From: Laccaria trichodermophora
Lineage: Eukaryota > Basidiomycota > Agaricomycetes > Agaricales > Hydnangiaceae
DNA: 64,000 nucleotides
NCBI GenBank assembly: GCA_018417955.1
Contig: JACTVC010000014.1
Span: 558,001 to 622,000 of the forward strand
Direction of reading: 5' to 3'
Shown: piece by piece, positions 20,407-40,490 of the stretch
Position numbering within the stretch: the first letter of the stretch is position 1
Layout: each line of letters begins with the position of its first letter
Made by a program: the position numbers and the translations under genes
The notes under the pieces: model-generated
Told to the model about the DNA's origin: nothing
Databases searched by the model: none
What the model saw: the letters and a program-made list of their open reading frames with translations, nothing else

Positions 20407-21656
20407 GGCTTTCAGCAGTAGGGTTCGTCTGCACTCTCGATGGAGAACTCCAAGAAATTGTAAGGAAGTAAATCGAGGTGAGAGAAAGCAAGAGGAAATT
20501 TAAAAATACCGTTTCCCACGATCAAAACTTGAACTCAACAATTCACTTCTCCAAAACGGCGATCTCAACTCTGAGGTCTCCTCAAATAAAGCCTTTTTGC
20601 TCGTTTATATGGTGGTATACAACGGCAATACTATATCGACAAAACCCTTTATTTGGGAAAAATAACCAGATTACAAGACCCTTATTCCTGGATTGACGTC
20701 AACTAACCGACAACTGATCAAGGCTTTTGCTGGCTTTTGTGATTGTCGAGAACGAAAACCTCCTGAATCTGTCTACCCCCTTGTCCACGAATATTTCTTT
20801 TTTCGAAAGAAAATTCTAAAGAGCCTCTTTCGACAGGGACGAAATGCATCGCCCCATAACTCCTTTTGCTGTGAGCTCTGCGTTCAAGACACGCTCAGAT
20901 ATGGCTGTATAGCGCCACTCGCAGCGAATAAAATGTGCGTTTACAACAGTTTCTCTCTTTCCTGCTGCGCTGGAAGCGCTAACCCATGTACATGCAATCC
21001 TAATCTAACCCAATCTTGGGTTTCACTCAAACACCCACAACATTGTGCAATGTTACAAACGGAAAATCTGTAAGTAAATGATTCGCTACAACTTAACTTC
21101 AAGCTCTAATCGAACCGCACTCCGACAATTTTTGTACAACGTAACAAGGCGTAAATAAACGCATTTCTACAACTTACCTTCAAACTCACCGCCTTCCAGC
21201 TACGTGCCGACTTATATAGGTCGCGAAAAACCTCAACTGCGCTAGACCTTCCTTTGGTCTTGCGGCGCTTATTTTCGGTTACGCATCAATGTGGTGTGAA
21301 CATGGCCGACATCCGTCCGTTAAATCTAAGAAATCTCCATTGCAATGGTTGCACTGATTTTTACAGGAGCTGCCGCAGCAGCGAAGGGTTCTTCGCGACT
21401 CCCTCAACCCTTCCCGATTATCCACCCCAATATAACCGAGGGGTTGTTTACACTGTTCCATCCCCTGGTTAGGATCGAATTTCCAGAAACCTCGCAATGT
21501 CGTGACGCTATAGTGCTCTGCAAGAGGCTGTATACGTGCACTCCTTCAGAACTACATAAGATTCGCATCGAGAATTATTGACCCCTCAAGTACCTCGCCT
21601 CGAGAATCATTAAGACCCTCCACCATCCCCACGCATTTCAACAATAAAAAACACAT
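20407..21656. other. Shared 5' region of the TPR gene and dsRBD gene A
   Basis: There is no supported coding sequence. It must contain promoters for the TPR gene (-) and for dsRBD gene A (+), and is duplicated upstream of dsRBD gene B. TTATATGG near 20605 is a candidate TATA-like element. Confidence 0.4.
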
Positions 21657-22244
21657 ATGGACGGTAAATATAGCTTACACTCGTGGTTACTGGCGTTTCC
21701 TAACTCTCTTCTCAGCTCATGTTCATCTTTTCAATAACATGTACCAGCGCCATTTTCGAGGCGCTGTCCCTCGATACGAGTACCAGGAGAGTGGACCCCA
21801 ACACGAGCCCTACTGGCAATGTCGCATATACGATTGTAAGCAAAAGACATACTTTACTCTTTCCGTTTGTAATTCTGTTCCCTTGCAGCACAAGATGTTT
21901 CAATTGGCATCGGTGGGGGCAAGAATAAGAAATTTGCCAAGAACGCCGCAGCGGATAGCGCTATTCGTTTTCTATATAAAACTTATCATAAAGGTGAGTC
22001 CTACGCCTCTCGAGGGTTGTCAGGAGATGGGGAGGCTCATCAACGCTCCGAAGATGTGGTCCACGGTTCCGACTCAACACATGAAGATAATGGCGGTGGA
22101 ATGGCAACGGCTGTATACGACACGTCAGTCCCCGCTGAGGATGCCGATACAAATAAACCGTTACTCGACACAGCTGAAGCTTCTAGCGATCCTCGAGCAG
22201 AAGACGAGCAGCCTGAGGAAGACTTGCTCAAATTGCCGATATAA
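21657..22244 (+). CDS. Small dsRBD protein, copy A (canonical, acidic tail)
   Basis: Exons 21657-21663 (MDA), 21716-21835 and 21889-22244 give 160 aa. Residues 4-76 fit a double-stranded-RNA-binding domain: helix 1 NNMYQRHF, beta strands around YEYQESGPQHEPYWQCRIY with the loop GPQH at 29-32, and IGGGKNKKFAKNAAADSAIRFLY with the dsRNA-contacting KKFAK at 56-60. All three dsRNA-contact regions are present. A roughly 80-residue acidic Asp/Glu/Ser-rich tail follows and ends LLKLPI. A 30-nt stretch with GT...AG ends at 21994-22023 is in frame and too short to be an intron, so I read through it. It is the only copy with full dsRNA-contact lysines. A likely role is RNA binding in silencing or dsRNA sensing; this is inferred. 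Confidence 0.78.
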
Positions 22245-22629
22245 ACACACCGCCTGTTTTCGAGTGCCATCGCTCAGCTCAATCTTGCCCAGTACACCGG
22301 AAGCGGCAGCGGGCCCTTGTGATATAGGGAGGGGCGGCTGGTTTCTTTTTGATAGACCCACCCCTTCACGACCTCCTTGGGGACTTCGGAACGTTAGGCG
22401 ATGGATATCCGCAGTCTGGTGTGTCGCACACAAAAATTGTCTATGTGCCCTGTTACTTTCTCCCCCCTCCCTGTATGGACACCCGGTGTAGAGTTTGAGA
22501 TGTTGGACAGTTGACTCAATGACGTTTGACATTGGCTTGTTATCATTATACCTCAATTACTTATACCCGTTCTGTTTCGCCCAGACGAGCCTCAATTTGA
22601 AGTTTCGAGCCCGATGTGCGTACGTCATC

Positions 22630-22840
22630 TAATCCCAGCACTTTATGACATCTATGGGCGATGGGCTTGATCCAGACGCGGCCATCATTCCGAGTCGTCG
22701 TCGACTCTCCCGACATCCTGCAGCTTTTTATGTAAAACAGTCGGGCATCCGCCGCGGAGTCTGCAGCCCCCATCGTGCTATCGCTTACCATCTACATCCC
22801 CTATACAGTCAACAGTACCCCCGGGCCTTTGGCAGGTGAA
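22630..22840 (+). pseudogene. dsRBD gene remnant (C-terminal part only)
   Basis: The sequence around 22737-22840 encodes IAYHLHPLYSQQYPRAFGR, matching the C-terminus of copy C (VAYHLHPRY...WAFRR). The upstream part is frameshifted relative to copy C. The 3' flank (ACTAAGAACGTTTGACTGTG at 22908) matches the other copies, showing this was once a full unit. Confidence 0.6.
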
Positions 22841-23529
22841 TGTAAAGGAAGGGAGCGTCGGGCGGGTCGTACGCTAAACCCATCCCGCCCCCGGCTTTGG
22901 GAGCCTACTAAGAACGTTTGACTGTGGGTGTTTTGCTGCTGCTCTCGCGGCGATTATCCATGGTCCTCGTTCCTTTTTCTCTCTACATCGTGTATGGACA
23001 CCGGGGGTATATTTCGGACAAGTGACGGCTTGAAACCTATGTAGATAGCGCTATAGGAAGGGGTGGGGTCTATAAACTTCCTATCTCCCTGTACCGATAT
23101 CTACGAGATTCAGGAAGTTATCGTCGTTATACAGCATTATACCCAAGCTACATGTTCAATCTGTTTTCCTTAAGTTTTGCTTGTCCGTCCGTGTGAGCAA
23201 TTGCATGGATTGAAGTTGTTTATGACCCTACTAAGCAAGGGAATCCTAATCAAACCTTGGGAGGCCTAGCCTGCACGTCACCAAGTCAAAACTGGAGGGT
23301 CAATTATAAAGCTTCTACCATCGAATAAATTCAGGAAATGTTACAGTGTGGTAAATCTATGCCGGGACTATGAGGGGGATAAATCAGGGCCAGTGCACAA
23401 ATAGAAGATTTAGTTGAGCTCATCCTTGGAAACAGCGACTCGGAGCAGCAAATTCTTCTTCACAACTTCACGACCACGAACCACAAGTTTACTGGCCTCA
23501 AACTGATTCTACTATTGTCAATCGCACCT

Positions 23530-24030
23530 CGCTAAAAACACAACGACGCCTTCGATTCCCTGCTACCGTGTTTGTCTCTAGAACAACATCACATCGTCAA
23601 TGACGGGCTCGACGGGCAAGACACGTCAAAAAAGTATTACGAACACGCCAACTTAAATCAAAACGTGCAAGGAGGCAATGAAGGAGGGTTCGTCTGAAAC
23701 TTCTGTTTGTATGCGAGACGCCCGACGCTCACACTGAATTCCATCCAGAACTTCGAAGCAAACTTTGGTCTGTCGAAGGACAGAAGAGGACATCGGCTTT
23801 GACTTAGACGGGGGAACCGGGTAGGTGATATGCGGTTCTGATGACGCTGCTTGAAGTTTGAACTGAACAATACAGGAATTCTCCAAGCGCGCAAAATGTC
23901 AATGAAGACTCATGACCACGCCTGTCTTTCCATTACATGGAGATACATCACGAAGGATAATCAATGTTCTGACAAAGACACCCTTTTGTCGCGCAATAGT
24001 CTCCGGTTTGTATGATGCACGCATCCTTTC
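23530..24030 (+). pseudogene. SURF6 5' fragment 1 (degraded)
   Basis: The nucleotide sequence resembles the first exons of SURF6 (39042 onward): ACAACGACGCCTTCGA at about 23540, a CATCGT...AATGACG segment, and a tail similar to 31640-32230. It has stops and frameshifts in every frame. The trailing part (AGACTCAT...GAGATACATCACGAAGGAT) also appears at 32110. Confidence 0.55.
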
Positions 24031-24059
24031 TGCATGAAGTTGAGGTATAAGAGGGAGTT

Positions 24060-24448
24060 GGAGCCAAGGACCTCAAAAGTATTTCAGTATCCAATAGGGA
24101 GATAATGCTGCAACGATAGCACAAACGTGGTACGCTGATATATCGCCAGTGCTTATTTCTGCTAATGCAATGGATGGCAGGCGGTCGAATTTCCGTGTCC
24201 TCGGCGTCCTCAGGAGCCTCCTGCGCCTTCGCTTTGGGTGCTGCTGCCTCCTTTGCTTTCGCGGACTTCTTGGGTTTCTTCTTCTTTTTCTGCGTCGTCA
24301 CCACCGGGTCCTCGACGACTTTCTGAATCTGGTGAAGTCTCCCCGGAGCGAATCAGAGGCGTCCAGGATCCCAAAATGTAGGTGGTAGTATTTCGTCGGT
24401 GTCTGGAGAGGGCGGAATCTCGTCGACTGGGGCCTTTGCGTCATCCAT
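24060..24448 (-). pseudogene. TPR-gene 5' pseudogene
   Basis: This is a partial copy of the first exon and exon 2 start of the TPR gene at 20406. It keeps KKKPKKSAKAKEAA and CISRNKHWRYIS, but frameshifts occur just after the start (near 24400) and after RYIS. No downstream exons exist, so it cannot make the TPR protein. Confidence 0.75.
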
Positions 24449-25674
24449 GGTTTCCAGCAGTAGTATCCGCCGTCGCTCTCAACGGAGAACATCGAGAAAT
24501 CGTAAGGAAGTAAGGTCGAGGTGACAGAACCTGGCAAGAAACTTGGAAAACTTCCCACGATAAGAACTCAACTCCCTTCAACACGGCGATCTCGATGAGG
24601 TCTTTTCAGAATGAAGCCTTCCTGCCCCATATATATGGTGGTATACAACGGCAAAACTATGACGATGACACCCTTTCTTGGAAACTAATCATCTTTGCAA
24701 GACGGGTAATGCATTGGTAATGCACTCTTTCCTACGCTTTCTGATTGACGTCAACTGACAGACAATTGATCAAGGCTTCTGTGATTATGAACAGCGGAAA
24801 CCTTCTGAATCTGCCCCCTACCCCCCTGTCCATGAATCTTGCACTTTTCGCAAGACAATTCTGCAGAGCCTCTTCGACAGGGACGAAATAGCATCGCCTT
24901 TTGTTTCCGTAATCCTTTTGCTGTGAGCATGCAAGATACGTCCAGACATGGTCGTATAGCGCTAGTCGCAGCGGATAAGAGCTGCATTTACGACAGTTTC
25001 TCTCTTTCTTGCTGTGTCGGAAGCGGCAACCCATGTACACCCTTCTAATATACTAGCTTGATCTTAGGATTTAACCGGATCGCACTTTGCACAGCGTAAA
25101 AAGGCGGAAAACTGCGGAAAATCTGTAAGTAGCGCATCTCGGCAGCTTATTTTCAAGCTCTGACCGGACCGCACTCCCACAACTTTTGTACAGCGTAACA
25201 AGGCGTAAGTGGGCGCATCTATACACTACCTTCAAGCTCACCGCGTTCCAACCATGTGCCGACTTTTGCCGGCCGCGAAAAGCGTCAACTGCGCGAATAG
25301 ATTTCCTTTTCCTCTTGTGGTATCACGGCTGAAATCCGTCCAGTAATCCCAAGAAACCTCCATTCCAATGGTTGGATTGATTTACAGGAGCTGCAGGGTA
25401 CCGAAGGTTTTTCTCAGGTTCACCGTGACTCCCTTTACGCTTCCCGGTCAATCATCTCAATACAACCGGTTTCAAAAATGATTGTGTTCCACCTCCAGCC
25501 TCGGGTTAGGAACGAAAACTCATAATGTTGTGATGGTGTTAGTGCTCTAAAAGCTCGGTGACGTGCACTCCTTCATGACTAAAGATTCGCCTCAGGACTT
25601 ATCGACCCCTTGAGTACTATATAAACACCTTCAGAATCGTGTAGACTCACCATCCCTCCGACATCTTGGCATAC
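24449..25674. other. Duplicated 5' flank of dsRBD gene B
   Basis: This is a diverged copy of 20407-21656 and contains the same TATATGGTGGTATACAACGG element at 24635. No supported ORF. Confidence 0.45.
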
Positions 25675-26056
25675 ATGAGCGGTAAATTCAGCTTAAACGC
25701 GTTATTACTGGCGTTTTCTGACTGCCTTCTCAGATTCTGTTCATCGTCTGAACACTCTATATCAACGCCTTTTTGGAGGCTCTTTCCCTCGATATGATTA
25801 CCACTGCAGTGGACATCAACACGAGACCAACTGGCAATGTAACATATTCAGCTGTAAGCAAAAAAAAAAAAACACACTCTGTTCTGTCCACTGACGATTT
25901 TATTCCCTTACAGCGAACAATGCGGACGATCGTCCCATCGGCGTAGGTGGGGGGCTGACTAAAAGATATTCCGCGAGCGCTGCAGCGGATAGCGCTTTTC
26001 GGCTTCTATATCGAAATTATTATGACAGTGACTCCTGGGCCTTTGAAGGGTTGTGA
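25675..26056 (+). CDS. Small dsRBD-like protein, copy B
   Basis: Exons 25675-25681, 25734-25853 and 25914-26056 join in frame to 89 aa, with the same phase-1 introns as copy A and an identical 120-nt middle exon. The domain reads MSDSVHRLNTLYQRLF, YDYHCSGHQHETNWQCNIF, then PIGVGGGLTKRYSASAAADS. The GPxH loop is changed to GHQH. The KKxAK motif is reduced to TKRYS, so dsRNA contact is probably weakened. The acidic tail of copy A is absent; translation stops at FEGL. Confidence 0.68.
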
Positions 26057-27635
26057 TACAGCGAGGGGGGGCTGGGTGGGTTTTATGGAAGACCCACCCG
26101 GCCTCCTTTGGGACTTGAGAACATAGATATCCGCCCACAGCGATTGTCTATGTACCCTGTTGCCTTCTCTCCCTTTCCTGTATGGACGCTTGAAGTAGAG
26201 TCTGGGATGCTGGACAGTTGACGTTTGATACCCACGGATGAGAGAATAGAAATCTGTGCTGATACCCACGAGACATAGGCTTGTTGTTATTATACCTCAA
26301 TTACTTATACCCGTTCTGTTTCGCCCAAACGAACCTCGATCTGAAGTTTGAACCCTATGCGCCCAGCTAGAAAAAAACGACACTAAGTACTTCGTCTAAT
26401 CCCAGGACCAGGGTGCCAGGGTGCCAGGGTGCCAATCCCGACATCATCACTGGCACAGCTTTACCAAAGCTTTACTTCTTATTTATGCAACACGGTGACT
26501 CGGAGATGATGTCCACGACTACCAGCACACGTGGCAATTGCACTCTCATGGAGGAACAGCATCCTTCGGAAAGTCACATCATCTCTCGGAGGCAAAGATT
26601 CATGTGTGCACTGGCAAGTTGGCAACTTCTGTTTGACAGCCACTGTACCAACCGTGTCCTTCTGTTGAAACAGTGGCAAATCGAATAGATCAATGCTGGT
26701 AATTGGTACAACAACCAGAAGCCTCTCGGGTCCCCCCTGTTTCTGCAGGGTAGGAAAGACAACTTTGCAGAGCCTTCAACTTCGAATGAACGGTATTGCG
26801 TTTATCTTGGCTGTGAGCACTGCAGTCAAATACGCACGCAAAGACACAATCTAAGCACCATTACCAACGGTAAAGGTCGCTGCTATGCAGTTAGTAGTTT
26901 CTTTCCTTTTTGCCGCACCGAACCAGGCGCTACTACACCCACTTTCGGGTTCATAATAGGCATTTCAAAACATATGACTCAATTCTACTACGTCCAAGCA
27001 GTGCGAGCCACTTAGACCACGCTTGGGACGTATTGGGGCTATAAACCGCAAGCCATCAGCAACGCCGGCCGGAAAATTGTACTCGCATCAAGTACAACTT
27101 GTCTTCAACTTCTCTAAGCCACCGCCCAAGTTGTATCAAACTCCACAGTAATTACAAGCTGCTGTAACAACCCCGAAAAGCGTCACTACGCGCAGCTGGA
27201 TCTTTTTAACCGTCCTCATGCGTCTTATATTGCGGGCGGGATTATGGCCAGATTTCGTTTGTTGCTTCGAAACTTGAAACCCGGCACTTGCTACTTATAC
27301 TTATTATTCTGTACTCGGTTTACAAGATCTATGGCAGCATCAAAAGTTTCCTCTTGGTTTCCTCCCAGGTTCGCCGTGACTCCTTTACTGCATTTGAGGG
27401 ATTTATCTCCCTTCCGGTACGGCCGCGTTGAAAATGTCTGGTTATTCCCGCTGTTCCATTCCAAGCTCCGAGTAAGGATGGGATTCCGGATGCTCATGAT
27501 GTCGCAGTTGTTGCACTGCTCCAAAGGCTCGATATATCTTCTAATCTGGACAGTCACTACTCAGCAAAATCTTGCACGTCCCACCGTCAACCACATCGCC
27601 ACCATCGCCTCGTCATCCTCAACAATCCAGCGTTC
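26057..27635. other. Spacer between dsRBD genes B and C
   Basis: The 3' flank of gene B is followed by a diverged dsRBD-unit upstream region; the stretch at 26700-26900 resembles 24790-24970 and 32290-32460. A short tandem of GGTGCCAG units lies at 26408-26432. No supported gene. Confidence 0.4.
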
Positions 27636-28011
27636 ATGGACCGTAAGTAAATATTGCACCCGCTGTTGTCAGTGACTTAAATCTTCTCACCTTCCCGCAG
27701 GCTCGAACAGAAATTACTTGGCTACTGTCATTCAACGCCTTTTTCCAGGCTACGAAGCTGAATATGCTTACAGTCGCTTTGGAAGCCAGCATGTTACAAC
27801 CTGGGAGTGTTCCATATATTGTGGGCAATTTGTTCGTAAAGTTGACAATCATTAAACTCACTCACTCCCTTGTAAAGTGTACCATAGGATGATTGGCATC
27901 GGGCAGGGGTCTAGTCGGGCATCCGCCGCGGAGTGTGCAGCCCATCGTGCTGTCGCTTACCATTTGCATCCTCGATACATTCGGCAGTGCCCCTGGGCCT
28001 TTCGCAGGTGA
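27636..28011 (+). CDS. Small dsRBD-like protein, copy C
   Basis: Exons 27636-27642 (MDR), 27701-27820 (again 120 nt) and 27878-28011 would give 86 aa: NRNYLATVIQRLFPG, YSRFGSQHVTTWECSIY, then MIGIGQGSSRASAAECAAH and ending WAFRR. The second intron needs a GTAAAG acceptor, where the related genes have GCACAG or TTGCAG. Either a weak AAG acceptor is used or the gene is newly broken. GPxH is GSQH, and KKxAK is replaced by SRASA. Confidence 0.5.
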
Positions 28012-28769
28012 ATGTAAAGGAAAGGGGCGTCGGGGGGATGTACTACATAAGTAGGCAAAGGTTAAAACCCATCCTGTCCACTTTGGGAGCTTACTAAGAA
28101 CGTTTGACTGTGGATTATCTGCCTTTCAGCGATTGTCCATGTTCGTAGATGTTCGTCCGTTTGTGTGAGCAATTGCCAATTGCTCGAGTCGTTTATGGCC
28201 CTAGTAGGTAAGTAAGGCAACTAATTATTTCTAACCAAATCTTGGTTCGATACTCCGGAATTCTCCAGACTTCTGCGCATCCACGTACATCGCCAAAACA
28301 CTTTCGGCGTCGTTTGGCGTCGTCGGCCCCAAGCATCTTGACCTCAATTACAAACCTTAGGCTACTGAATAAACATTACATATGAGTTCTAGCTTTGAGT
28401 CATTGAAGAGTGCACAAAATTTGGGCCACAAATAAAAGACTTGGAGCTCATCGTTGGAAACAGTGAGCAGGAACCAACGATGACCAATGTCGATCGACAA
28501 AATAAACATTTGCATCTACATAGTCTAAAATTTGTGCTAACCTTGGGTGTTGATACCATCTGGAGTCGATTATAATGACACCAACATGTAGATTGAATCG
28601 TTTTTCCCCAGATCCTGGACCGCTATATCAGGCTGTTCGCACAATGTGGAGGATCGTGACACCACCACGCTCCTCCCCTTTTGTCGTTCCGTGATTCCTC
28701 CATCAAACATTGAAATACGCGGCATAGCATGATGGGCTGACCCAGAATTTGCAAGCGTAGTAACGGATA
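28012..28769. other. 3' flank of dsRBD gene C
   Basis: The CTAAGAACGTTTGACTGTGG element (28093-28112) and a following segment match the flank of the remnant at 22908-23480. Homology stops near 28490, where the F-box gene region begins. Confidence 0.45.
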
Positions 28770-31529
28770 TCAAATTTGTGCAACAATCTCAACTTTTTCC
28801 CAATGATCGTGTTGAAGGGGTTCAGCTATGTGGTGCCTGACGGTATAGATCAACCAGTGTTTCTAAAATTACAATAATTCGGTACTCACTTTCGGCATAG
28901 ATGTGGTATCAAGCGGTCCATCGACCATAGCTGGTAAATAGGTCGCTTCGGGCACATTTTGCACATGAACTGGCAAGGGGGTTCCAGCGAATAGTGAAAG
29001 GGTTTGCGAGAACTATATCCCCGTGGAAAGTTGAACCGGTGCTTGTACGCGATGACATCTTTGCCAACGACTGGCTTCTCAATGCCATGACTACCGTGAA
29101 TGAAGCGTAAATTGAGAGGAACGAGAAAGTGGTCAGACGATGACTCACCTTTCATTGACATGAACCTTTGCAAACGGAAGTGAAACACTCTGTTCAAAAT
29201 GTTCCGAGCAATGGTTGCATCCCCAGGCCGGCGACACAGGGGAAGGGTGAAGGGGTTCTTGCTCTTTCACGAATCGCGTCGCTTCCTGTGTGAGAAGCTG
29301 CCAAGAACACACGGCATGTTGCCGTGCATGCGTAATCTATGCAACTTTCAATAAACTAGAAAGACGACAACGATTGCCAAGAAACCTACACATTCTGTCC
29401 ATGTATATGCCTTTCGTCCTCGGACACCTCGTATAGACAAGATGGGGCAGGATCCACAAAAAAAGCGGGCGTCAATCAGGTCAAGCTGTTCTGTCGTCGT
29501 TGTCCCAGGGTCGAGCCCCAAAGAGCGTATGAGCGAAGTTGAAGCAGCACGACCGACCGAGTTGAACTCGAGTTTCAGATGGGGAAAAGGAAGACGGGGA
29601 AAGAGAGGTTCTCGAGATTTCTGGTTCATGTGCGAGCAAATATTCGTCCATCCACAAAGTGCCACGCCGGAGATATGGCCAAACTGACATATCCTGCATC
29701 CAAAAACAGATGTTGCCAAATTTAGGCGGGCGTAACAGTCCATGGAAGCGACGGAGTGATCGGTACCTTCTGGCAGCAAGGAAGCCAGACGGTTTACTTG
29801 GGAGTCCATGAATTGTAGAGTAAGCCGAGGAAAACGAACCAGTGCATCGTTCTTTGAAATCTCTCCAATAACATCATCTTTCGAAGAGATGAAATCATCA
29901 AAGAGTTTGTAAACTTCAGGCAGAGGCATGGTGGATGTCCACTGTTCTGGCTTCAACGTCTTGGTATACTCCGTATAACGTAACTTGACCACTTTTTTAC
30001 GTTCCAGAACCAGTCTCTTCCTTCTTTTCATATTCACTGCTCTTTCAAGGTTGGGCTTTATCTTCCGGTACACTTGAGGAATAAATCATTAGAAACCAAA
30101 GAGTTCTGCTGCATAAGACGCTTACCCTTCCGTGTGAGCCGTGTGATGCTATATTTGTACAACGTTGTAAGAGCAATGTATTGAGCAGCAGTTGTATCAC
30201 GTGGGTCATGTCCTATGTTCGAAAGTCGAGTCATGCATCTGTGATTAGATATCTCAGCATACCAGGAAAGTTGCAACGAAGTAGATGCTTACCTTTTGGC
30301 CATCTCCCCTTTCAAACGTTCCCTTTCAAAAGATAAATCACTATAAATGGTTTGTGCCCATCTGTTGGCTCCTGAAGCATTCTACAACACATTGAGAGAA
30401 AGCCGCAAAGGCCATGAGAAACACGCACAGCCTCATTCTCGTCAAGTTTGGCTGTAACCTCGGATAAGAAGACTCGATATTTTTCGCCAGCACCTGGTAC
30501 CTCCGCAGCAATGTCGCCCAGGAATTCCTTTACCCTGTCGACCATTGCCTCGACGTCCTTTTTCAGATACCGTACATAGCCGGTTCCACCCAGGCCGCTA
30601 AGGAGATAGCTCGCGCTGCCTATACAGAGTCAGCTTTCTCATGCCACGAATACTTGCTCACTTACCTCGCCGAAATGTCCTCGGAACCAGTTCCCAGACA
30701 ACAGCAAGATCGTTTTGGGAGTTTTCTGATATGATGTGGACCATATCGCGTTGGTGCACCACATGGGTTCCCTGGAGGTTGAAAGAGAGGTTAACAAACT
30801 GAAAGTTAGGAGTCAGTCATTACCAACCCAACAGACTTCACACAGTCGTTTCTGGAAGGAAAAGTCGGGGAGAGCCCCATGACTCCCACAGATCTGTTCA
30901 GGGGTATTGATTGAGATTATTGAATTCAGCTAGCAAATCGACTCACATCACAAGTGTCGGGACCGAATAACAGAGATGACCATTGGGGTTCAGACATACC
31001 CTTCGGGCAGGATGGCAACTCCTTGTGTATGCGAAAGGCATTTATCCACACGCCTCTGTACCTTGGATTCAGAATTATACTTCTGAAGGTTTTAGAGGAT
31101 TGTATAAGGTGATAGAGGTCCACAGGGTGTAAAGACTCAAATATCTGGACAAAAGGTAAGGAGGATTCGAGAAGCAGAAGAAGTGGGCTGACCCCGAAGA
31201 GAACATCAGTCGGCAGTGCAAGGAAATTACTCAGATCCAAACGTTTGTATTTGAAGCATGTTCTGGTCGCCTTTCTTGCCTCTTTCATAATCCGACCAGT
31301 CATATAGTTCGCTTGGACATACGTTTAGACAACGCGAGGGTGTAAAAATAGTTGACATGGACGAACCACGGACATATGGGTCATACAGAGCCCTCCTGCA
31401 TACATTCGGTTGGCCTTCTAGCAACTCGTCAACTCCCACTGCGTCGAAGGGAAGAACCTGGTAGGGTTCCATCAACAAATGTCTGCAAAAATTGGCTAGA
31501 TTCAAGGCAGCAAAATCTTCTTCTTCCAT
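28770..31529 (-). CDS. F-box protein (Agaricomycete type), many exons
   Basis: This is a probable SCF ubiquitin-ligase adaptor. From ATG 31529, exon 1 (31367-31529) reads MEEEDFAALNLANFC and ends DPYVR. It splices to NYMTGRIMKEARKATRTCF, then the F-box: LPTDVLF-GIFESLHPVDLY, QSSKTFRSIILNPRYRGVW. Later exons give SEPQWSSLLFG, a cysteine segment (ICGSHGAL, RLCEVCW), VKEFLGDIAAEVPG, ERERLKGEMAKR, then 29348-30073 with LERAVNMKRRKRL and FFCGSCPILS, and finally HARQHAVCSWQLL and PAWGCNHCSEHF. At least ten introns are needed. The final exon is ambiguous: stop at 28822 or 28770. It interrupts the dsRBD array. Confidence 0.75.
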
Positions 31530-31639
31530 AAGAGTGCTGAGTGAGCGGTGGCCAGAAAAACTTCGAAAGAGAAAAACGGTTCATGTAAGTCATAACGCAC
31601 CTGGATAACTTGGTCAGGTTCGATGTGAAGTCAAGCTCA

Positions 31640-32170
31640 CGTGAGCCGTTTGGCTCTCCGCGACCCAGCTGGCAACCGCAGCTCTACAGGCCTTGCTAGA
31701 GAAACACAACGATCCCCTCGATTCTCTGCTGCCGTGTCTATTTTCAAAACAATATCAAATTGGATGACGGGTTCGAGGGGCAAGACGCGTCAAAAAAGTA
31801 TCACGAACAGCACAACTCAAATCAAAACGTGCAAGGAGGCGACGAACGTCGAAGAGGGCAGAAAGAAGGTTCGTCTGCATGTTCTGTTTATCTGCGAGAA
31901 GCCCGACGCTCCCGAAATCTTGTCCCAGTGCACCCGATTCAGAATTAAGCGGCGTCCACGAGAAAACAACAAACACGGAGTATGTCCCCTTGACAAAAAC
32001 CCTATCCGACCCCGACATCGGCTATGGGGGACTCGGGTAGATGACACGTGGTCCTCTTGACATTAATTGCACTGAACAACGCAGCAATCCTCCAAGTGCG
32101 CAAGCGCCAATGTCGATGAAGACTCATAGACGCCCTTCTTTTCATTATACGGAGATACATCACGAAGGAT
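31640..32170 (+). pseudogene. SURF6 5' fragment 2 (degraded)
   Basis: ACACAACGATCCCCTCGATT and the following 300 nt correspond to SURF6 exon 1, its first intron and the start of exon 2, with scattered changes and stops. It is nearest to the fragments at 23530 and 36725. It sits directly before dsRBD unit D. Confidence 0.55.
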
Positions 32171-33032
32171 AATCAATATCTTGACGAAGACACCCTTTTG
32201 TCGCGAAATAGTTTCCAGTTTATGTTTCACGCATCCATTCTGCATGAAGTTGAAGGACTGACAGGGTTTAGGGACAAAATCAAGACTGTTATTATCATTG
32301 GAAGAACGGAAACCTTCTGATCCCCCTCGCTCTTGCACGGCTCGAAAGGCAGCTTTGCAGAGCCTACAACAGGGGATGATTGATATTGCTGCCTGCACAC
32401 CGGTGCTGTAAAACACCGCCGTCAATATGCACACAAAGGCATCCCAGTGGGTCGACTGAGCGCCTCCTCCGACAATGAAGGGCTGCTGCGCGACAGATCC
32501 CTTTTTTCCCGCCGCATCGGAGGTTTCAGCCCACCTGTCCTCTTGTGTGGGTTACTGTCATGTTTCTTTCCGAATATGTTGCGATCTTAATCTACTAACA
32601 CTCTTTGTAGGTCCGGTCCACCTGGATCTTGGACCGTTGTAGGGCCGTGCGCTGCACAACAATGTCGGCCGTCGGCTCACAGCGTACTGCCAAGGCCAAA
32701 AGAATTGTACGCGCATCGTACAACTTGTTTTAAGTTTCAACTTGATGGCGAATATCCTATGAAAAGTGCTCTTACAGAGCCAACAAACTCACATCATTAT
32801 GGAACTGCAGTGGGTTTACAGGAGCTGAGGCGGAAACGAAGGTTCGTTCAGGATCACCAACAATCTACGGCTTCTTGTGATACATCATATCTCCCGATGC
32901 CGTCACGTTTCAACCCATTTGTTGTCCCTACTGTTCCAGCCACGCGCCCGAATCGACTTGAACCAGAAAGCTGATGATGTCGCGACTGCTGTATTGATTG
33001 GAACTCAGAGCTCGGTACTCGCGCCACAAGCC
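32171..33032. other. Upstream region of dsRBD gene D
   Basis: This non-coding repeat-unit sequence is shared with 34700-35560 (gene E) and 37280-38260 (gene F). A TATAAG box at 33038 lies close to the start codon, as in the other D-F units. Confidence 0.4.
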
Positions 33033-33459
33033 ATGTTTATAAGAATCGAGAGTCACCATGGGACTCAGCAATACTTACCCACACAAAAAATCATGGAATC
33101 CGTGGAGCGTAAGTACAGCTCCAAGCATTAGTGTCAGCACCTTTCTAACTTTGTCGCAGACCACAAGAACCGGCTGAACGCCATCCTGCAATGCCTCTTT
33201 CCCGACGTTCTACTTGAATCCAATTACGAACAGTCTGGACCTTGCCATGATCCGACCTGGCAGTGTGACATATATCGTATGTTGCAGTAAACTTACTTCC
33301 TAATCCTTTGTGATTTACTTCCTTTGCACAGTTGACGGTGTGCACATTGGTTCCGGCAAGGGTATCACAAAGCCATACGCATCTGAAGGCGCAGCGGAGA
33401 GCGCTGTTGAATATCTACGTCGCCAATACTCTGAACAGTATCCCCGTGCCTTCCGCTAG
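33033..33459 (+). CDS. Small dsRBD-like protein, copy D
   Basis: Exon 1 ends at 33108; exons 33160-33276 and 33332-33459 follow. Starting at 33033 the protein is 106 aa; the more conservative ATG at 33093 (MESVE) gives 86 aa and matches the short first exons of E and F. The domain reads KNRLNAILQCLFPDV, YEQSGPCHDPTWQCDIY, DGVHIGSGKGITKPYASEGA and AVEYLRRQY. GPCH is intact. KKxAK is changed to TKPYAS, leaving one lysine. Both introns are phase 1, and intron 2 (GTATGTTGCAG) is nearly identical in D, E and F, indicating recent duplication. Confidence 0.75.
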
Positions 33460-33771
33460 TGATGCGGTGAAGGGGCGCTGGGTGGGTTCATTTCGATATC
33501 CACTCCTTTATGCCCTTTTGGGTGCTTAAGATCGTTTGACTGTGGACATTCTGCTGCTACGCCTACAGTGATTGTCCATATCGTTCGTTACTTTTGCTCT
33601 CTTTATCTGTGTGGACGACTCCCAAGGGGTACGCACGGATGAGAGAATAAAGGCCCTCTCTCCTCAAACTAGATGTAGCCTTGCTGCCAATATATATCTT
33701 TTCTTGTCCGCGAGTCCCAAACAACTTTGAACCCTTTGAACAAGCTTTGACTCTCGCCTCACTTACTACGA

Positions 33772-33783
33772 CCCTAACCCTAA
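33772..33783 (+). promoter_or_regulatory. Telomere-like (CCCTAA)2 box, duplicated copy
   Basis: Two CCCTAA units precede the SURF6 fragment in this unit, at the same relative place as the box in front of intact SURF6. It is now in front of a pseudogene. Confidence 0.45.
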
Positions 33784-33819
33784 CTTGACCCTAAAGCTCC
33801 TTTCTTTCCCTCCCGATAT

Positions 33820-34263
33820 CATAGCCGACTCCAGCAGCGGTCCTACGCGCCTCATTGCAAGGACACAACGACGCCTTCAAGTTTCTCCTTCGTTTGATCC
33901 CTGCACAATAGAATGACGAGACAGAGGGCCGAGTTGCGTCAAAGTACCAAAAACACTATAGGAAACAAAACGCGCCCAAGCAAGAGGCGACGAAGAAGGC
34001 AAAAAGAGGCAAGGTTTGTCTGGAGATTATCTAAATTGCGAAAAATCTGACACTTGCGAAGCTTGACCCAGCGAACTATAAATCCATAGTCGACATCCAG
34101 AGTAAAGCGGTCTCCGCGAGAAAACAACGAACTTAGGGGAAGCGGAAAGCTCTGATGAAGAATCTGCATCAGAAGGCGATGAGCAACATTCAGACGCTGC
34201 CTTGAACGCTGACCTCGAGGCCCATATGGCTTTAGAAGAGGACGAAACTATGGACGCAGACAC
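33820..34263 (+). pseudogene. SURF6 5' fragment 3
   Basis: This copies SURF6 from just before the ATG (which is lost: ATAGCCGACTCCAGCAGCGG) through exon 1, intron 1 and the acidic part of exon 2 (GAGCAACATTCAGACGCTGC at 34181). It ends abruptly at a TGA near 34277. Several deletions disrupt exon 1. Confidence 0.65.
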
Positions 34264-34329
34264 TCTGGAATCTGTTTGACGTCGACTGCACTGACTCCTG
34301 TTGAAGACAGTTACAGATTAAATCGGTCA

Positions 34330-34690
34330 AGGCTCAGGGCAGTGTTTACAAAAGCCAGAAACATCTGGCTTCCCCTTGTCCTTGCAGCAGGCGGAAAGAA
34401 GGTTCGTCCGAATGGTCTGTTTATCTGCGAGAAACCTGACACTCGCGAAAGCTCGTCCCAGTGAACCATACCTCTTTCGCTGCCATCCAGAACTAAGCGG
34501 TGTCCACGATCAATGACACACCAAAACCGGAACTGGAAATTTCTGTCTGTCCCTTTGGCAAAGAACCTGCAATTGAGGGCGATAAACAATATTCAAATGC
34601 GGTCATGATATTGATTCGACCCGACATCGGCTTTGACTTAAACGGGGACTCGGGAAGGTGGTTCCCACGACACTACTCAAACCGAACAAC
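34330..34690 (+). pseudogene. SURF6 5' fragment 4 (diverged)
   Basis: A second, older-looking SURF6-related fragment lies immediately downstream. AGGCGGAAAGAAGGTTCG and the following TCTGCGAGAAACCTGACACTCG correspond to the exon 1/intron 1 region. The remainder matches 36900-37160 and 31860-32060. Confidence 0.5.
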
Positions 34691-35564
34691 AAACCGATCC
34701 TTCAAGCGCCCGAAGCCAATGTTGATACAGAAACCTTCTCGTTCCCCCTCATCCTTGCGCTGTTCGCTCCGCAGAGCCGGCAACAGGGAATGGATGATAT
34801 CGCCTTTTATTGCTTGTGCACCTGTGCTGTAAGTCTGTGAGTCACCGCAGTCAATATGCACACCAATGCATGGACCACTGAACGCCGCCTCCGACAACAA
34901 AGGGCTGCTACCCGACAGATCCTCCTACCTGGGGGCGTCAGCCCATCCTTCTTCCCGTGTGACTCACCGGCATCTGCCACTTCCGGAATATGGGCGACGA
35001 AAGAAATCTACGCGTTGCCAGGAGCCTGGAGGAGGATCGGCGATTACGTGCTACTTGGAGGTAACCTAATTTTTTTCAAATAGGGTGCGATCTTGATCTA
35101 CCTATACTCAAGCAACACGGTTTCACCTGCACTTTGGACCGTGCGCTGCACAAATACTTATGTGGACGTAGACAAGATCCAGGAACGATGGCGTGCGCAT
35201 CAGTCTTCGTTTTCACTCCCACTTTTGACCTACTAAATTACAGGTGTTGTGTCAGCCGTCAGCTCACAGTGTAGTGCAAGAAAATCTATGCGCATCAGTA
35301 CAACTCGTCTCCAAGTTTCACCGCCCTGATGGCGAATATGAAAAGTGCTGTTACAGAGCTGAGTTCGCCGTCACTCTACACCTTCTGCTGATTCATTGTA
35401 TAGTCGCGTTGCAGTGCATTGATCAAGTCTCTACTGTTGTTCCTCCCCCAGTACCGTGCTCGATTTTTTTCCGAGTCGCTGATGGTGTGGTGATTGCTTT
35501 ATTGCTCTGAATTCAGGGCTTGGTTTGGCGCCACAAGTCGTGCTTATAAGCATCAAGAGTCGCC
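34691..35564. other. Upstream region of dsRBD gene E
   Basis: Repeat-unit sequence homologous to 32290-33030 and 37360-38260; no supported ORF. A TATAAG motif at 35546 lies about 20 nt before the start codon. Confidence 0.4.
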
Positions 35565-35932
35565 ATGAGCCTCACTCAAAAAATCATGGCAACGACGCAT
35601 CGTAAGTGCAGCTCCAGGCATTAGTGCTAGCACTTTCCTGACTTTGTCGCAGATAAGAATTACCTCAACACCATACTTCAGCGCCTCTTTCTTGACGTTC
35701 CACCACTTGAATACAAGTACGATCAGGATCCCACCTGCTGGCAGTGTGCTATATATTGTATGTTGCAGTCAACTTACTTCCTTCCTGATCGTTTGTGATT
35801 TACCTCCTTTGCACAGTGGACAGTGTACATATTGGCACCGGGGAAGGTATCAATAAGCAACATGCATCTGAAGGCGCAGCGAAGAGTGCTGCTGTCTATT
35901 TGCATGGCCAATACCCCGAGGCCTTCCGGTAG
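35565..35932 (+). CDS. Small dsRBD-like protein, copy E
   Basis: Exons 35565-35601, 35653-35757 and 35817-35932 give 85 aa (MSLTQKIMATTH, then KNYLNTILQRLFLDV, YKYDQDPTCWQCAIY, DSVHIGTGEGINKQHASEGA, ending YPEAFR). A 12-nt deletion relative to copy D removes the SGPCH loop entirely while keeping frame. KKxAK is NKQHA. The frame and splice sites are intact despite loss of canonical RNA-contact residues. Confidence 0.72.
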
Positions 35933-36246
35933 TGATGCAGTGAAGGGGCGCTGGGTGGGTTCACCTCTAAACCCACTCTTTTATGCCCCTTCGGATGCTT
36001 AAGAACGTTTGACTGTGGATATTCTGCTGCCGCACCTACAGCGCTAGCGATTGGTCCATATCCTTCGTTGCTTTTGCTCTCTTTAGTTCAGATTTACGGA
36101 TGAGAGAGAGAGAGAGTAGAGGCTCTCTCTCCTCAGACTCGATATAACCTTGTTTCCATCCTAAATATACCCTTTCTTGTCCGCTCGCAAGCAATTTCGA
36201 AGCTTGAGCAAAAAATCAAAGCAAACGTTTTTCAAGTAGTTTATGA

Positions 36247-36258
36247 CCCTAACCCTAA
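36247..36258 (+). promoter_or_regulatory. Telomere-like (CCCTAA)2 box, duplicated copy
   Basis: The same TATGACCCTAACCCTAAC context as in front of intact SURF6, here preceding SURF6 fragment 5. Confidence 0.45.
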
Positions 36259-36289
36259 CACCTTCCTTTCACTCTCTCCTCGATTAATG

Positions 36290-36570
36290 CCGACTCCAGC
36301 AGCGGTCACACGCGTTTCGTTGGAAACGATGACGCCTTCGAGTCTCTGCTTCGTTTAATTCCAGCACAATACTACATCGTGAACGACGAGACAGAGGAAG
36401 AAGCTGCGTCGAAGTACCAAAAAACAAAGTGAGAAACGGAGCGCGCCCAAGAAGGCTATCAAAAAGGCGACGAAGAACGCAAAAAGAAACAAGGTCTAGA
36501 GATTATCTAAATTGCGAAAATCCGACACTTGCGAAGCTTGGCCCAGCGAACCATAAATCCACATCCAGAT
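36290..36570 (+). pseudogene. SURF6 5' fragment 5
   Basis: This is very close to SURF6 39034-39320: GCCGACTCCAGCAGCGGTC, TCGAGTCTCTGCTTCG and CATCGTGAACGACGA all match. The ATG is altered, the exon is shortened, and homology stops just inside exon 2. It is the least diverged of the fragments. Confidence 0.7.
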
Positions 36571-36724
36571 TAAAGTGTATTCATCCATGATGACAATCGT
36601 GACCACACACTCATATCCCAGCACAAAGCTATAAACCGTACGGTACCCCATTGATAACCGCCAGTTCATCCTTCGAACTTGCAGAGTTACTGCTATCAAT
36701 TCCCCCTTCCCTATCAACCAATAG

Positions 36725-37160
36725 CCCTAATGTCGACCCAGCCGCGGTTTTACGCGCCTCGGTGGGAAAACACATCGACACCTTCGGTTCCCCGCTACCC
36801 TGTCTATTTCCAGAACAATATCGCATCTTGAATGACGGGCTCGAGGGGCAAGGCTCGTCACGAACACCACAACTTGGATCAATTGTGCAAGAAGGCAATA
36901 AAGAGAGCAGAAAGAAGGTTCGTCTGAATGGCCCGTTTGTCTGTGATGAGCCTGACGCTCGCGAAAGCTTGTCCCAGTGAACCATCCGGAACTTAGCGGC
37001 GTCCACGAAAAGAACTGGAAAGTTTCGTCTGTCCCTTTGACAAGGACTCCGCATCTGAGGGCGATGAACAAAATCCATGCGGTCATGCCAGTTGACTCTT
37101 CCCCGCCATCAGCTTTGACTTCGACGGGGAACTTGGAGAAATGATACGTGGTTCCCACGA
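36725..37160 (+). pseudogene. SURF6 5' fragment 6 (diverged)
   Basis: ACCCAGCCGCGGTTTTACGC is followed by a diverged exon 1-like sequence and GCAGAAAGAAGGTTCGTCTG, as in fragments 2 and 4. Stops are present in all frames. Confidence 0.5.
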
Positions 37161-38265
37161 CGCTCTTTGAACTGAACAACACACCATTCCTCCAAGCGCC
37201 GATGTCGATGAAGACTCATAAAGGCGCCTTTCTTATCAACACGAATAAACAATGTTTTAACAAAGACACGCCTTTGTTGCGAATTAGTCTCCAGTTTGTA
37301 TGATTCATGCAGCTTGAAGTACTGATGGTATACAGTGGCAAATCAAAACTAATTATCGGATACAGAAACCTCTTGGCTACCCCTCATCTTTGTGCTATTT
37401 GCAGCCTGCGACAGGGAGTAAGTGATATTGCCTCTTATCGCTTGTGCACCCGCGCTCTGAATATGCACAACAACGCCGACACAGGGCTCCTACCCGACAG
37501 ATCCCTTCTTACCTGAGGGAGTCGGCCCATCTTTCTTCACGTGTGGCCCACCGGCATCTGCCACCTCGGGATATGTGGCGTTTGGTGACGAGGTAAATTG
37601 ACGTGTTGCCAGGAGCCTGGAGAGGATCGGCGATTACGTGCTGCTTTATTTTTGAGGTGACCTGTTTTATTTCCCAATGTGGTGCGATCTCAATCTACTA
37701 CTACTGTTTGTAGGTCCAAGCAACGGTCCACCTGGACTTTGGACCGTCGTTGGCCCGTGCACTGCACAACTATGTCGGCCGTCGCCTCACAGCATAGTGC
37801 CAAAAAATCGTACGCGCACAGTACAACCTGCCATTGAGCTTCACGGCCCTGGTGGCGAATATACTGTGAAAAGTGCTGTTACAGAGGCGAACAATGGCTA
37901 ATACGCATCTTCTTACCTGCCTAACGCGTTTTATGCTCCGAAAAGAAGGGGTCATAGCCAGGTTCGATTTATTACTATTTCCAAACAAATTCTACACCCA
38001 TTATTGAATTGCAGGAGCTGAGGCGGAACCGAAAGTTTGTTCAGGATCACCGACACTCTACGGTGTCTGGTGATTCATCATATCTCCCGATGCCGTCGCG
38101 TTTCAGCGCATTTGTTTCCCTACTGTTCCGCCCAGTCCCGCAGTCGAATCGAGTCGTTCCAAAAAGCTGATGGTGTAGTGATTGCTGTAGTGCTCTGAAT
38201 TCAAGGCTCGGTATTCGCGCCACAGGCCCTATAAATATCGAAGTCGCCATGAGTGAGACTCAGAA
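37161..38265. other. Upstream region of dsRBD gene F
   Basis: Repeat-unit sequence shared with units D and E. A TATAAATA box lies at 38230, about 35 nt before the start codon at 38266. Confidence 0.45.
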
Positions 38266-38663
38266 ATGCCCGCACACGCAGACGTCGTAGCAAACATGGA
38301 TCCGGAACGTAAGTAAAGCTGGACGCATTGGATCAGCACTTTCTGACTTTATCGTAGACAACAAGAACCGCCTAAACAACATTCATCAGCGTCTCTTTCA
38401 TGACGTTCTACCTGAATACACTTACGAACAGTCTGGACCTTGCCATGATCCTACCTGGCAGTGTAAAATATATGGTATGTTGCAGTAAACTTACTTCCTA
38501 ATCCTTTGTGATTTACCTCCTTTGCACAGTGGACAAGAAGCCTAAGCCTATTGCCATAGGCGGGGGTACCTCTATGCAGAATGCCTCGGAAGCCGCAGCG
38601 CTGAGCGCTATTCAATATCTACACTCCGTGTTCCACGCAGAGGACCCCGATGCCTTCCGTTAG
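38266..38663 (+). CDS. Small dsRBD-like protein, copy F
   Basis: Exons 38266-38308, 38358-38474 and 38530-38663 give 97 aa (MPAHADVVANMDPEH, KNRLNNIHQRLFHDV, YEQSGPCHDPTWQCKIY, KPIAIGGGTSMQNASEAAAL, ending DPDAFR). GPCH is retained; KKxAK has become SMQNA with no lysine. Intron positions and phases match all other copies. Confidence 0.73.
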
Positions 38664-38993
38664 TGATACGGTGAGGGGGCGTTGGGTGGGTTCACCTCGA
38701 AACCCGTTCCTTTATGCCCCTTTGGGTGCTTAAGAACGTTTGACTGTGGATATTCTGTTGCGTTTACGACGCTAGCGATTGGTCCACATCCTTCGTTGCT
38801 TTTGCTTTCTCTATCAGAGTCCACATTTGATACGCACGGATGAGAGAATGGAGGCTCTCTCTCCTTAATAGATGTGTTGCCACTATATCCTGAATATACC
38901 TTTCTTTCTTGTCCGCTTGGGATCCTTGAAGCTTGAAGCTTAAACGTTCTTGAACGTTTGAACCCTTTGAAATTTGACATAGCTAGTTTATGA

Positions 38994-39005
38994 CCCTAAC
39001 CCTAA
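38994..39005 (+). promoter_or_regulatory. Telomere-like (CCCTAA)2 box in the SURF6 promoter
   Basis: Two head-to-tail CCCTAA units end 36 nt before the SURF6 ATG. In ascomycete yeasts, telobox-type motifs (bound by Tbf1-like factors) occur in promoters of ribosomal and snoRNA genes, so a ribosome-biogenesis regulatory site is plausible. Function here is inferred. Confidence 0.5.
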
Positions 39006-39041
39006 CTTCCCTCCTCCCTCTCCTCGATTATTCAATATTCA

Positions 39042-40490
39042 ATGCCAACTCCAGCAGCGGTCCTACGCGCCTCGTTGGAAAGACACAACGACGCCTTCGA
39101 GTCTCTGCTTCGTCTAATTCCAGCACAATACTACATCGTGAACGACGAAACAGAGGAACAAGCTGCGTCAAAGTACCAAAAACACAGTAAAAAACAGAAC
39201 GCGCCCAAGCAGGCTATCAAAGAGGCGACGAAGAAGGCAAAAAGAAACAAGGTTTATCTAGAGATTATCTGAATTGCGAAAAATCTGACACTCGCGAAGC
39301 TTGACCCAGCGAACCATAGATCCATAGTCGACATTCAGAATGAAGCAGCTTCCGCGAAAAAACAACAAAAGGGGAAGCGGAAAGCTCCTGCTACTACCTC
39401 TGATGATGATGAATCTGCATTTGAAGGCCACGAGCAACATTCAGACGCTGCCATGGATGTTGATTTTGAGGCCGACATGGCTTTAGACGAGGACGAGAAC
39501 ATGGAAGCAGACACTTTGGTCCCCATGCCCCCCTCAGAGGGTATTTCAACCCTAAGAGACAAATTACACGCACGCATGGCCCAACTCCGGCGCGGTGGCC
39601 CTCGGAATCCAGGCGAAGCAGGGGACCGGGATGAGTTACTCGAAGAAAGGCGGCGGCAAAGAGCCGCTATGCGTGAGAAGAGGCGGAAGGAGACGAAAGA
39701 GAAGATTCGAAGGGAGGAAGAGATGAAGGGAAAGAAAACTGGAGGCGGAGCAGGTGGGAAGGTCGATGGGAGGGATAAGGGGAACGTCACAAAGGTACTG
39801 AACTGTGTATGCTACGCGGGACTCTGGATGCTGATTATCGTCTTTATCTTCTATTAGACCCAACTCTTAGTCCCAGATCGACCCTCAGAAAATGCTTCTA
39901 GTGGCCCTCAAAGCAACCTTACGACCATTGCATTCTCATCCCTCTCGCATACCACGAAGTCTACAAAATTCAAAACCACTGCCGATCCAACTCAAGCTCT
40001 TGCCCAACTCTCAGCACGAAAATCTAAACTCGCTGCCTTGCCAGCAGAGAAGAGAAAAGAAATTGAGGAGAAAGAAAAGTGGAGTAAAGCCGAAGCTCGG
40101 ATGGAAGGAGTGAAGGTGCACGACGACGAATCGAGGCTGAAGAAGGCGGCGAAGAGGAAAGAGAAGGAGAAGGAGAAGGGGAGGAAAGTTTGGTGGGTGT
40201 TTTTCTTATATTCATCTTATTTTTTTCATCGCTTTTTTCTGTCTTTTCTTTTTGGATTACAAAAATGCTAATGATGATTTAGGGAGGAGAAGAAGGAACA
40301 AGTCGCCAACGCGATGGCTGCTCGACAGAAAAAACGCAACGACAACATTGCAATGCGGAACGAACGCAGGAAAGGTGGGGGTGCGGGCAGTAAGAAAGGC
40401 GGGAAAGCTCGGCCTGGATTTGAGGGCAAGGCGTTCGGGAAGGGGAAAGGGAAGGGAAATTCGAAAGGGGGTTCGGGTGCTAAGAAGTAG
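39042..40490 (+). CDS. SURF6 / Rrp14 rRNA-processing protein
   Basis: This is a nucleolar RNA-binding factor for ribosome assembly (yeast Rrp14, animal SURF6). Exons 39042-39251, 39300-39794, 39858-40192 and 40283-40490 give 415 aa. The N-terminal SURF6 domain reads ERHNDAFESLLRLIPAQYY; an acidic stretch follows (DFEADMALDEDENME); then EGISTLRDKLHARMAQL, highly basic coiled segments, and the C-terminal signature WEEKKEQVANAMAARQKKRN, followed by a Gly/Lys-rich tail. The last intron splits the W codon of WEEKK. The gene is intact, while its 5' end was copied at least six times upstream. Its 3' end converges on the RdRP. Confidence 0.9.

What the first reader, a model, noticed from the sequence alone, without database searches (positions are those of the whole stretch)
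21657..38663. Tandem family of six tiny dsRBD-like genes, undescribed as a cluster to my knowledge
Six genes (A-F) plus one remnant share one gene plan: a very short first exon, two phase-1 introns, a middle exon of 105-120 nt, and a single dsRNA-binding-like fold of 85-106 aa (160 in A). The order helix, W-x-C strand, (I/G)GxG turn, A-S-E/A-A helix is conserved although sequences diverge strongly. Stand-alone single-dsRBD proteins arrayed and duplicating in a fungus would be unusual. They could be RNA-silencing modulators, dsRNA sensors or virus-related defence factors.
Basis: partly seen in the sequence, partly recalled or inferred. Interest (0 to 1): 0.88.

Follow-up and report, generated by a model that had tools for sequence, protein, structure and literature searches.

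The report
Mushroom array of mini dsRNA-binding genes
A Laccaria-like mushroom genome carries six tandem tiny genes, each predicted to encode a lone double-stranded-RNA-binding fold, beside an RNA-silencing polymerase gene; they likely act as helpers or brakes of RNA silencing, and five of the six would bind RNA weakly or hold a partner protein instead.

Summary
Six gene models (A-F) share one plan: a short first exon, two phase-1 introns and a 105-120 nt middle exon. A degraded extra copy is also present. The dsRBD reading holds: A, D and F pass Pfam's dsrm cut-off, C and E score below it with E under 0.003, and B is marginal. AlphaFold models of two Laccaria-type relatives (A-type and C-type) give alpha-beta-beta-beta-alpha at pLDDT 91-92, and their listed PDB matches are dsRBD proteins.

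Three points go beyond the finding. (1) A silencing-type RdRP gene lies about 3 kb away, with a SURF6 gene between. (2) Only copy A keeps the full KKxAK RNA-contact motif; F keeps none of its lysines, so most copies may be protein-binding dsRBDs. (3) The array is not alone: at least seven more small dsRBD loci exist in this genome, and the five spliced here share the intron plan. Named database matches to the six-gene family are all Laccaria. I found no paper describing it in an open-licence library. The role in RNA silencing is inferred and untested. New variant of a known kind, of moderate interest.

The parts
21657..22244 (+). gene A (exons 21657-21663, 21716-21835, 21889-22244), 160 aa: dsRBD plus acidic tail; the only copy with a full KKxAK motif
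   Evidence: dsrm 3.4e-7; L. bicolor counterpart P0011 140/153 identical
22739..22927 (+). remnant of a C-like exon 3 region
   Evidence: 78% to 27913-28113
25675..26056 (+). gene B (exons 25675-25681, 25734-25853, 25914-26056), 89 aa
   Evidence: dsrm 0.079, under cut-off; 51% identical to A
27636..28011 (+). gene C (exons 27636-27642, 27701-27820, 27878-28011), 86 aa
   Evidence: dsrm 0.0028, under cut-off; L. bicolor P0002 83/86; fold of P0002
33093..33459 (+). gene D (exons 33093-33108, 33160-33276, 33332-33459), 86 aa
   Evidence: dsrm 1.6e-7
35565..35932 (+). gene E (exons 35565-35601, 35653-35757, 35817-35932), 85 aa; GPxH loop lost; may start at a later ATG
   Evidence: dsrm 0.0016, under cut-off; L. 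bicolor P0008 81/85
38266..38663 (+). gene F (exon 1 38266- or 38296-38308, then 38358-38474, 38530-38663), 97 or 87 aa
   Evidence: dsrm 2.9e-8
39042..40268 (+). SURF6-like gene flanking the array (approximate extent; start read by eye); pieces of its 5' part are repeated inside the array (for example 33819-34268)
   Evidence: SURF6 domain 1.5e-28 in 39858-40268; repeats
41843..46534 (-). silencing-type RNA-dependent RNA polymerase gene with the DxDGD motif as DQDGD; outer limits are approximate, from open frames, and the profile-supported part is 43175-44321
   Evidence: PF05183 4.1e-28 and 4.3e-6 in two of seven open-frame pieces, the other five without a Pfam match; genome search; motif across three exons 43029-42909
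24050..26054 (+). segmental copy of 20010-22020 (carries gene B and a copy of an open frame upstream of the left-hand, weakly TPR-like gene)
   Evidence: 71% over 2126 columns; TPR_9 under cut-off
32816..34268 (+). segmental copy of 38009-39519 (gene D, matching gene F with the SURF6 5' part)
   Evidence: 75% over 1552 columns

Best explanation
These six tandem genes are predicted to encode stand-alone single dsRBD proteins that likely act in trans as helpers or brakes of the mushroom's RNA-silencing machinery. Shown here: the gene plan, the dsrm matches of three copies, the segmental repeats that make up the array, and a silencing-type RdRP gene about 3 kb away. Predicted: the dsRBD fold, modelled on two relatives. 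Inferred: copy A would bind dsRNA, such as RdRP products, through its GPxH loop and KKxAK motif. Copies B-F have lost some or all of those residues and would mainly pair with other dsRBDs or with Dicer, tuning which dsRNA is processed, as DRB- and TRBP/Loqs-type proteins do elsewhere (recalled).
For: dsrm over cut-off for A, D, F; C and E under it at 0.0028 and 0.0016. PDB profile search: 23 distinct sequences at E up to 0.01, led by Loquacious (1.2e-8, the sum of three domains that are weak singly) and PKR (1.4e-8; its first dsRBD alone 0.00025). Folds H-E-E-E-H, pLDDT 91.1 and 92.4. The 50 listed PDB matches of each are, by title, dsRBD-containing proteins (TRBP, Loqs, Dicer, Drosha/DGCR8, RNase III, DRB7.2:DRB4 and others) or mitoribosome chains that I take to be mL44, also a dsRBD protein (recalled). 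RdRP neighbour with DQDGD motif. The searches found about 16 RNAi loci (6 RdRP, 7 Piwi, 3 Dicer; my grouping). The expected chance of one random locus lying within 3.2 kb of one of 16 is about 0.0017, or about 0.012 with about seven dsRBD loci as tries (my arithmetic). KKxAK complete in one of six, A. dN/dS of the D, E, F pairs is 0.31-0.51 (NG86), so these do not look like drifting pseudogenes. Proteins of relatives from assembled contigs (P0001, P0003, P0005) run through the junctions without introns, which suggests transcription of the family, not of these six copies themselves. Most fungal Dicers surveyed lack a detectable dsRBD (PMC12663654, passages), which leaves room for partners.
Against: No binding, interaction or expression experiment. 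Gene neighbourhood is weak evidence in fungi, the RdRP proximity was noticed and calculated after the fact, and the other small dsRBD loci do not lie beside RNAi genes found. The three Dicers found here each have a C-terminal stretch that looks by eye like a divergent dsRBD, so they may need no partner. B does not reach significance on its own (0.079), and A-B dN/dS is 0.86 (NG86) or 1.03 (YN00). Structural matches of both models also include mitoribosome chains, so the fold alone does not point to silencing.
Confidence: 0.45

Rival explanations
1. The proteins are general dsRNA binders that sequester dsRNA, or sense it in antiviral or anti-transposon defence, outside the Dicer pathway, and diversify in an arms race.
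For: Strong divergence between copies (33-51% identity to A), tandem duplication, named matches only in Laccaria for this family, A-B dN/dS near 1.
Against: Five of six copies lost RNA-contact residues; dN/dS of the D, E, F pairs is well under 1; dS exceeds both dN and intron divergence between D and F, so the exon divergence is not a clean sign of positive selection.
Confidence: 0.25
2. Only A, and perhaps D, is functional; the other copies are duplicates without a distinct role that arose because the locus is prone to unequal crossing-over.
For: A remnant copy and many broken pieces of neighbouring genes in the array; degenerate motifs in B, C, E, F.
Against: Six of six frames are open with usable splice sites; C and E have close counterparts in L. 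bicolor (83/86 and 81/85) and C also in L. amethystina (P0004, 70/83); D, E, F pairs have dN/dS 0.31-0.51.
Confidence: 0.2
3. They are ribosome- or rRNA-related dsRBD proteins (like mitochondrial mL44) with no link to silencing.
For: Mitoribosome chains are among the structural matches of both models; the neighbour SURF6 is a ribosome-biogenesis type gene (recalled).
Against: The products have no room for an RNase III-like part as in mL44 (recalled); several diverged copies; named matches only in Laccaria.
Confidence: 0.08

Closest known systems
dsrm (PF00035) double-stranded RNA-binding domain
   Same: Sequence profile in three of six over cut-off, order of elements, GxG turn and AA helix
   Different: Five of six copies lack the full KKxAK motif; E lacks GPxH
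DRB7.2 of Arabidopsis (single-dsRBD partner of DRB4; role recalled, structure title seen)
   Same: One dsRBD per protein; fold match to the DRB7.2:DRB4 complex (8igd)
   Different: Plant protein, not an array (recalled); no sequence family link shown
RbdA/RbdB of Dictyostelium (PMC4894637, passages read)
   Same: Proteins with a single dsRBD and no other defined domain; RbdB is needed for miRNA processing and co-localises with Dicer B
   Different: 297 and 733 aa, against 85-97 aa for B-F and 160 for A; not an array here as far as read
Third dsRBD of TRBP / Loquacious (type-B, protein-binding; the class is recalled)
   Same: The profile aligns to it weakly; lysines at the RNA face are lost
   Different: Part of multi-dsRBD proteins
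Other small dsRBD genes of the same genome (C14 two, C56 two, C12; also two on C2)
   Same: Short exon 1 (7-22 nt), two phase-1 introns flanking exon 2 (111-117 nt), 71-95 aa, in the five spliced
   Different: The C14 genes keep more of the RNA-contact residues; at most two adjacent copies

Membership tests
dsRBD (PF00035) | Profile score over the curated cut-off | tested here: inconclusive
   Met by three of six: A, D, F (31.2, 32.2, 34.6 bits); not met by B, C, E (14.0, 18.6, 19.4)
dsRBD (PF00035) | alpha-beta-beta-beta-alpha fold | tested here: met
   Models of relatives P0003 (A-type, 60/80 to A) and P0002 (C-type, 83/86 to C); the window's spliced proteins themselves were not folded, and no B-, D-, E- or F-type was
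Canonical RNA-binding (type-A) dsRBD | GPxH loop and KKxAK at the start of helix 2 (motif recalled) | tested here: not met
   Both present in A; GPxH also in D and F; KKxAK complete in one of six, A
RNA-silencing dsRBD cofactor | Binding to Dicer, Argonaute or RdRP | not testable with these tools
   Only neighbourhood of an RdRP gene
Dicer C-terminal dsRBD (PF20932) | Match to the Dicer_dsRBD profile | tested here: not met
   None of the six spliced proteins matches PF20932 at E up to 1 (F has a sub-threshold Dicer_dimer match, 0.035, 14.6 of 23.7 bits); no hit in the window in the six-frame search at E up to 10
Small dsRBD gene class of this genome | Short exon 1 and two phase-1 introns flanking exon 2 | tested here: met
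   Six of six in the array, five of five outside that were spliced; the C2 pair was not spliced and C19 only read by eye

The most novel reading that the evidence does not exclude
The array is an RNA-silencing module: an RdRP gene with a bank of interchangeable trans-acting single dsRBDs that stand in for the dsRBD missing or degenerate in fungal Dicers. Symmetric phase-1 exons and a homogenised intron 2 would let copies exchange domain halves and so vary dsRNA recognition quickly.
Probability: 0.2. Interest if true: 0.8.

Novelty: new variant of a known kind. Interest (0 to 1): 0.55.

Why it matters
Animals and plants use multi-dsRBD partners of Dicer (recalled). How fungi supply that function is little studied as far as my searches show, and most fungal Dicers surveyed lack a detectable dsRBD (PMC12663654, passages). 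A set of minimal dsRBD genes in a Laccaria-like mushroom, one array of it near an RdRP gene, gives concrete, short candidate proteins to test in silencing and dsRNA defence.

Tried and rejected
Positive selection: between D and F, intron 2 is 54/55 identical and exon 3 only 81/128 (Fisher 7.7e-8), which looked like diversifying selection. But dS (0.58-0.65) exceeds dN (0.30), and both exceed the divergence of the two introns together (10 of 104 sites), so gene conversion around intron 2, or constraint on it, fits as well. I do not claim positive selection.

Exon shuffling: D groups with F in exon 2 and with E in exon 3 (site patterns 15:6 against 11:26, Fisher 0.003). With three sequences a lineage-specific rate change would give the same result. 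The contig protein P0005 is closest to F in helix 1/strand 1 (22/28) and to P0013 in strand 2 to helix 2 (28/35), but it could be an assembly chimera. Kept as a lead only.

Dicers without any dsRBD: dsrm at E up to 10 gave no C-terminal hit in the three Dicer loci; the one hit, at C3:140219, lies in the Dicer_dimer domain. But the C-termini look dsRBD-like by eye, so 'missing' was softened to 'missing or degenerate'.

The array as a genome-wide spread family: searches with the single proteins D and A found the array itself plus one weak place on C12 (0.14). Rejected for close copies; the wider class was found with the dsrm profile.

Literature: nine of ten searches used listed no paper on this family. 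Only an open-licence library was searched. I saw listings, plus passages of PMC12663654 and PMC4894637.
Full report
WHAT IS THERE. The window lies on contig C6 of a 59.0 Mb, 77-contig genome. Laccaria is the nearest named source: the L. bicolor proteins P0011, P0002 and P0008 match A (140/153), C (83/86) and E (81/85). The three L. bicolor proteins share the scaffold size 3,566,367, and five L. amethystina relatives (P0004, P0006, P0007, P0009, P0012) share the contig size 132,504. This suggests that the array is also clustered there, but the tools gave no positions.

GENE PLAN. Six of six genes splice at GT-AG sites into open frames with two phase-1 introns; exon 2 is 105-120 nt. Intron 2 falls between strands 2 and 3 of the modelled relative. 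The contig-derived proteins P0001, P0003 and P0005 of relatives run through the junctions without a break, as expected of transcripts; the record type of those contigs is not known to me.

FOLD. dsrm scores are over the cut-off for A, D, F; C (0.0028) and E (0.0016) are under it; B is 0.079. The six-row profile matches 23 distinct PDB sequences at E up to 0.01, led by Loquacious (1.2e-8, a sum over three weak domains) and PKR (1.4e-8). AlphaFold gives helix, three strands, helix for the A-type relative P0003 (pLDDT 91.1) and the C-type relative P0002 (92.4). The 50 listed PDB matches of each are, by title, dsRBD-containing proteins or mitoribosome chains that I take to be mL44 (recalled). B, D, E and F types were not folded.

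RNA-CONTACT RESIDUES. A reads GPQH and KKFAK. The others read: B GHQH / KRYSA; C GSQH / RASAA; D GPCH / KPYAS; E no GPxH / KQHAS; F GPCH / MQNAS (read by eye; the motif's meaning is recalled). So one of six keeps the complete set.

ORIGIN OF THE ARRAY. 20010-22020 is repeated at 24050-26054 (71%), and 32816-34268 at 38009-39519 (75%); the D, E and F units match pairwise at 72-75% and carry 5' pieces of the flanking SURF6 gene. The array grew, I infer, by segmental duplication between a weakly TPR-like gene and SURF6. D, E and F pairs have dN/dS 0.31-0.51 (NG86); A-B 0.86 (NG86) or 1.03 (YN00).

NEIGHBOUR. A PF05183 search of the genome hit C6:601175-602321, window 43175-44321, minus strand. 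Two of the seven open-frame pieces scanned score 4.1e-28 and 4.3e-6; the other five have no Pfam match. The exons around the active site read LLSGGDQDGDELLVI. By open frames the gene ends about 3.2 kb from gene F, with SURF6 between; the profile-supported part is 4.5 kb away. By my grouping the searches found six RdRP, seven Piwi and three Dicer loci. One random locus would lie this near one of 16 with chance about 0.0017, about 0.012 over about seven dsRBD loci. The test was made after the fact.

NOT ALONE. Of the 14 dsrm places in the genome at E up to 10, two are in the window (A, D), seven belong to small genes elsewhere (C14 two, about 2 kb apart; C56 two; C12; C2 two), and the other five lie in a C19 exon that seems to belong to a longer protein, a helicase-type gene on C12, the Dicer_dimer region on C3, and two RNase III-like genes by eye (C3, C2). 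Five of the seven were spliced (C14 two, C56 two, C12) and five of five have exon 1 of 7-22 nt and two phase-1 introns. L. bicolor P0016 and the contig protein P0017 support two of these models. The gene plan is therefore that of a wider class in this genome.

RANGE. The family profile matched 13 proteins at E up to 10 among 4857 candidates; those with a name are Laccaria. The search needs shared 5-residue words, so distant relatives can be missed.

MECHANISM. I commit to trans-acting dsRBD helpers or brakes of RNA silencing: A on dsRNA, B-F mainly on proteins. The fold is predicted and the neighbourhood shown; the action is inferred. Three Dicers were found, each with a C-terminal stretch that looks like a divergent dsRBD by eye. 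A survey of 1592 fungal proteomes found most fungal Dicers without a detectable dsRBD, while noting that a divergent one may be present (PMC12663654, passages).

VERDICT. The finding is real and its dsRBD reading is right for the copies tested. It is one array of a wider small-dsRBD gene class, not described in the papers I could search. New variant of a known kind; interest 0.55.

Noticed in passing
41843-46534: Silencing-type RdRP gene on the minus strand with a 12-nt microexon inside the DxDGD motif (42965-42976).
   Followed up: partly
23535-23730, 31673-32233, 33819-34268, 36323-36575, 36729-36960: Several degraded pieces related to the 5' part of the SURF6 gene (and its flank), scattered through the array.
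   Followed up: partly
29348-31580: Minus-strand open frames between C and D; one (30926-31324) has a weak F-box match (0.00028 and 0.00076, both under cut-off). No repeat of it was seen.
   Followed up: no
12773-13456: Fungal-type protein kinase (PF17667, 5e-41).
   Followed up: no
50705-52588 and 60524-61681: Two genes with C2H2-like fingers that look alike by eye (the first 0.0015, under cut-off; the second not scanned), possible paralogues about 10 kb apart.
   Followed up: no
L032 (C2:695800-699300): Two adjacent dsRBD-like genes of a different type (GPKHAPVWT and GPSHEVIWT loops).
   Followed up: partly
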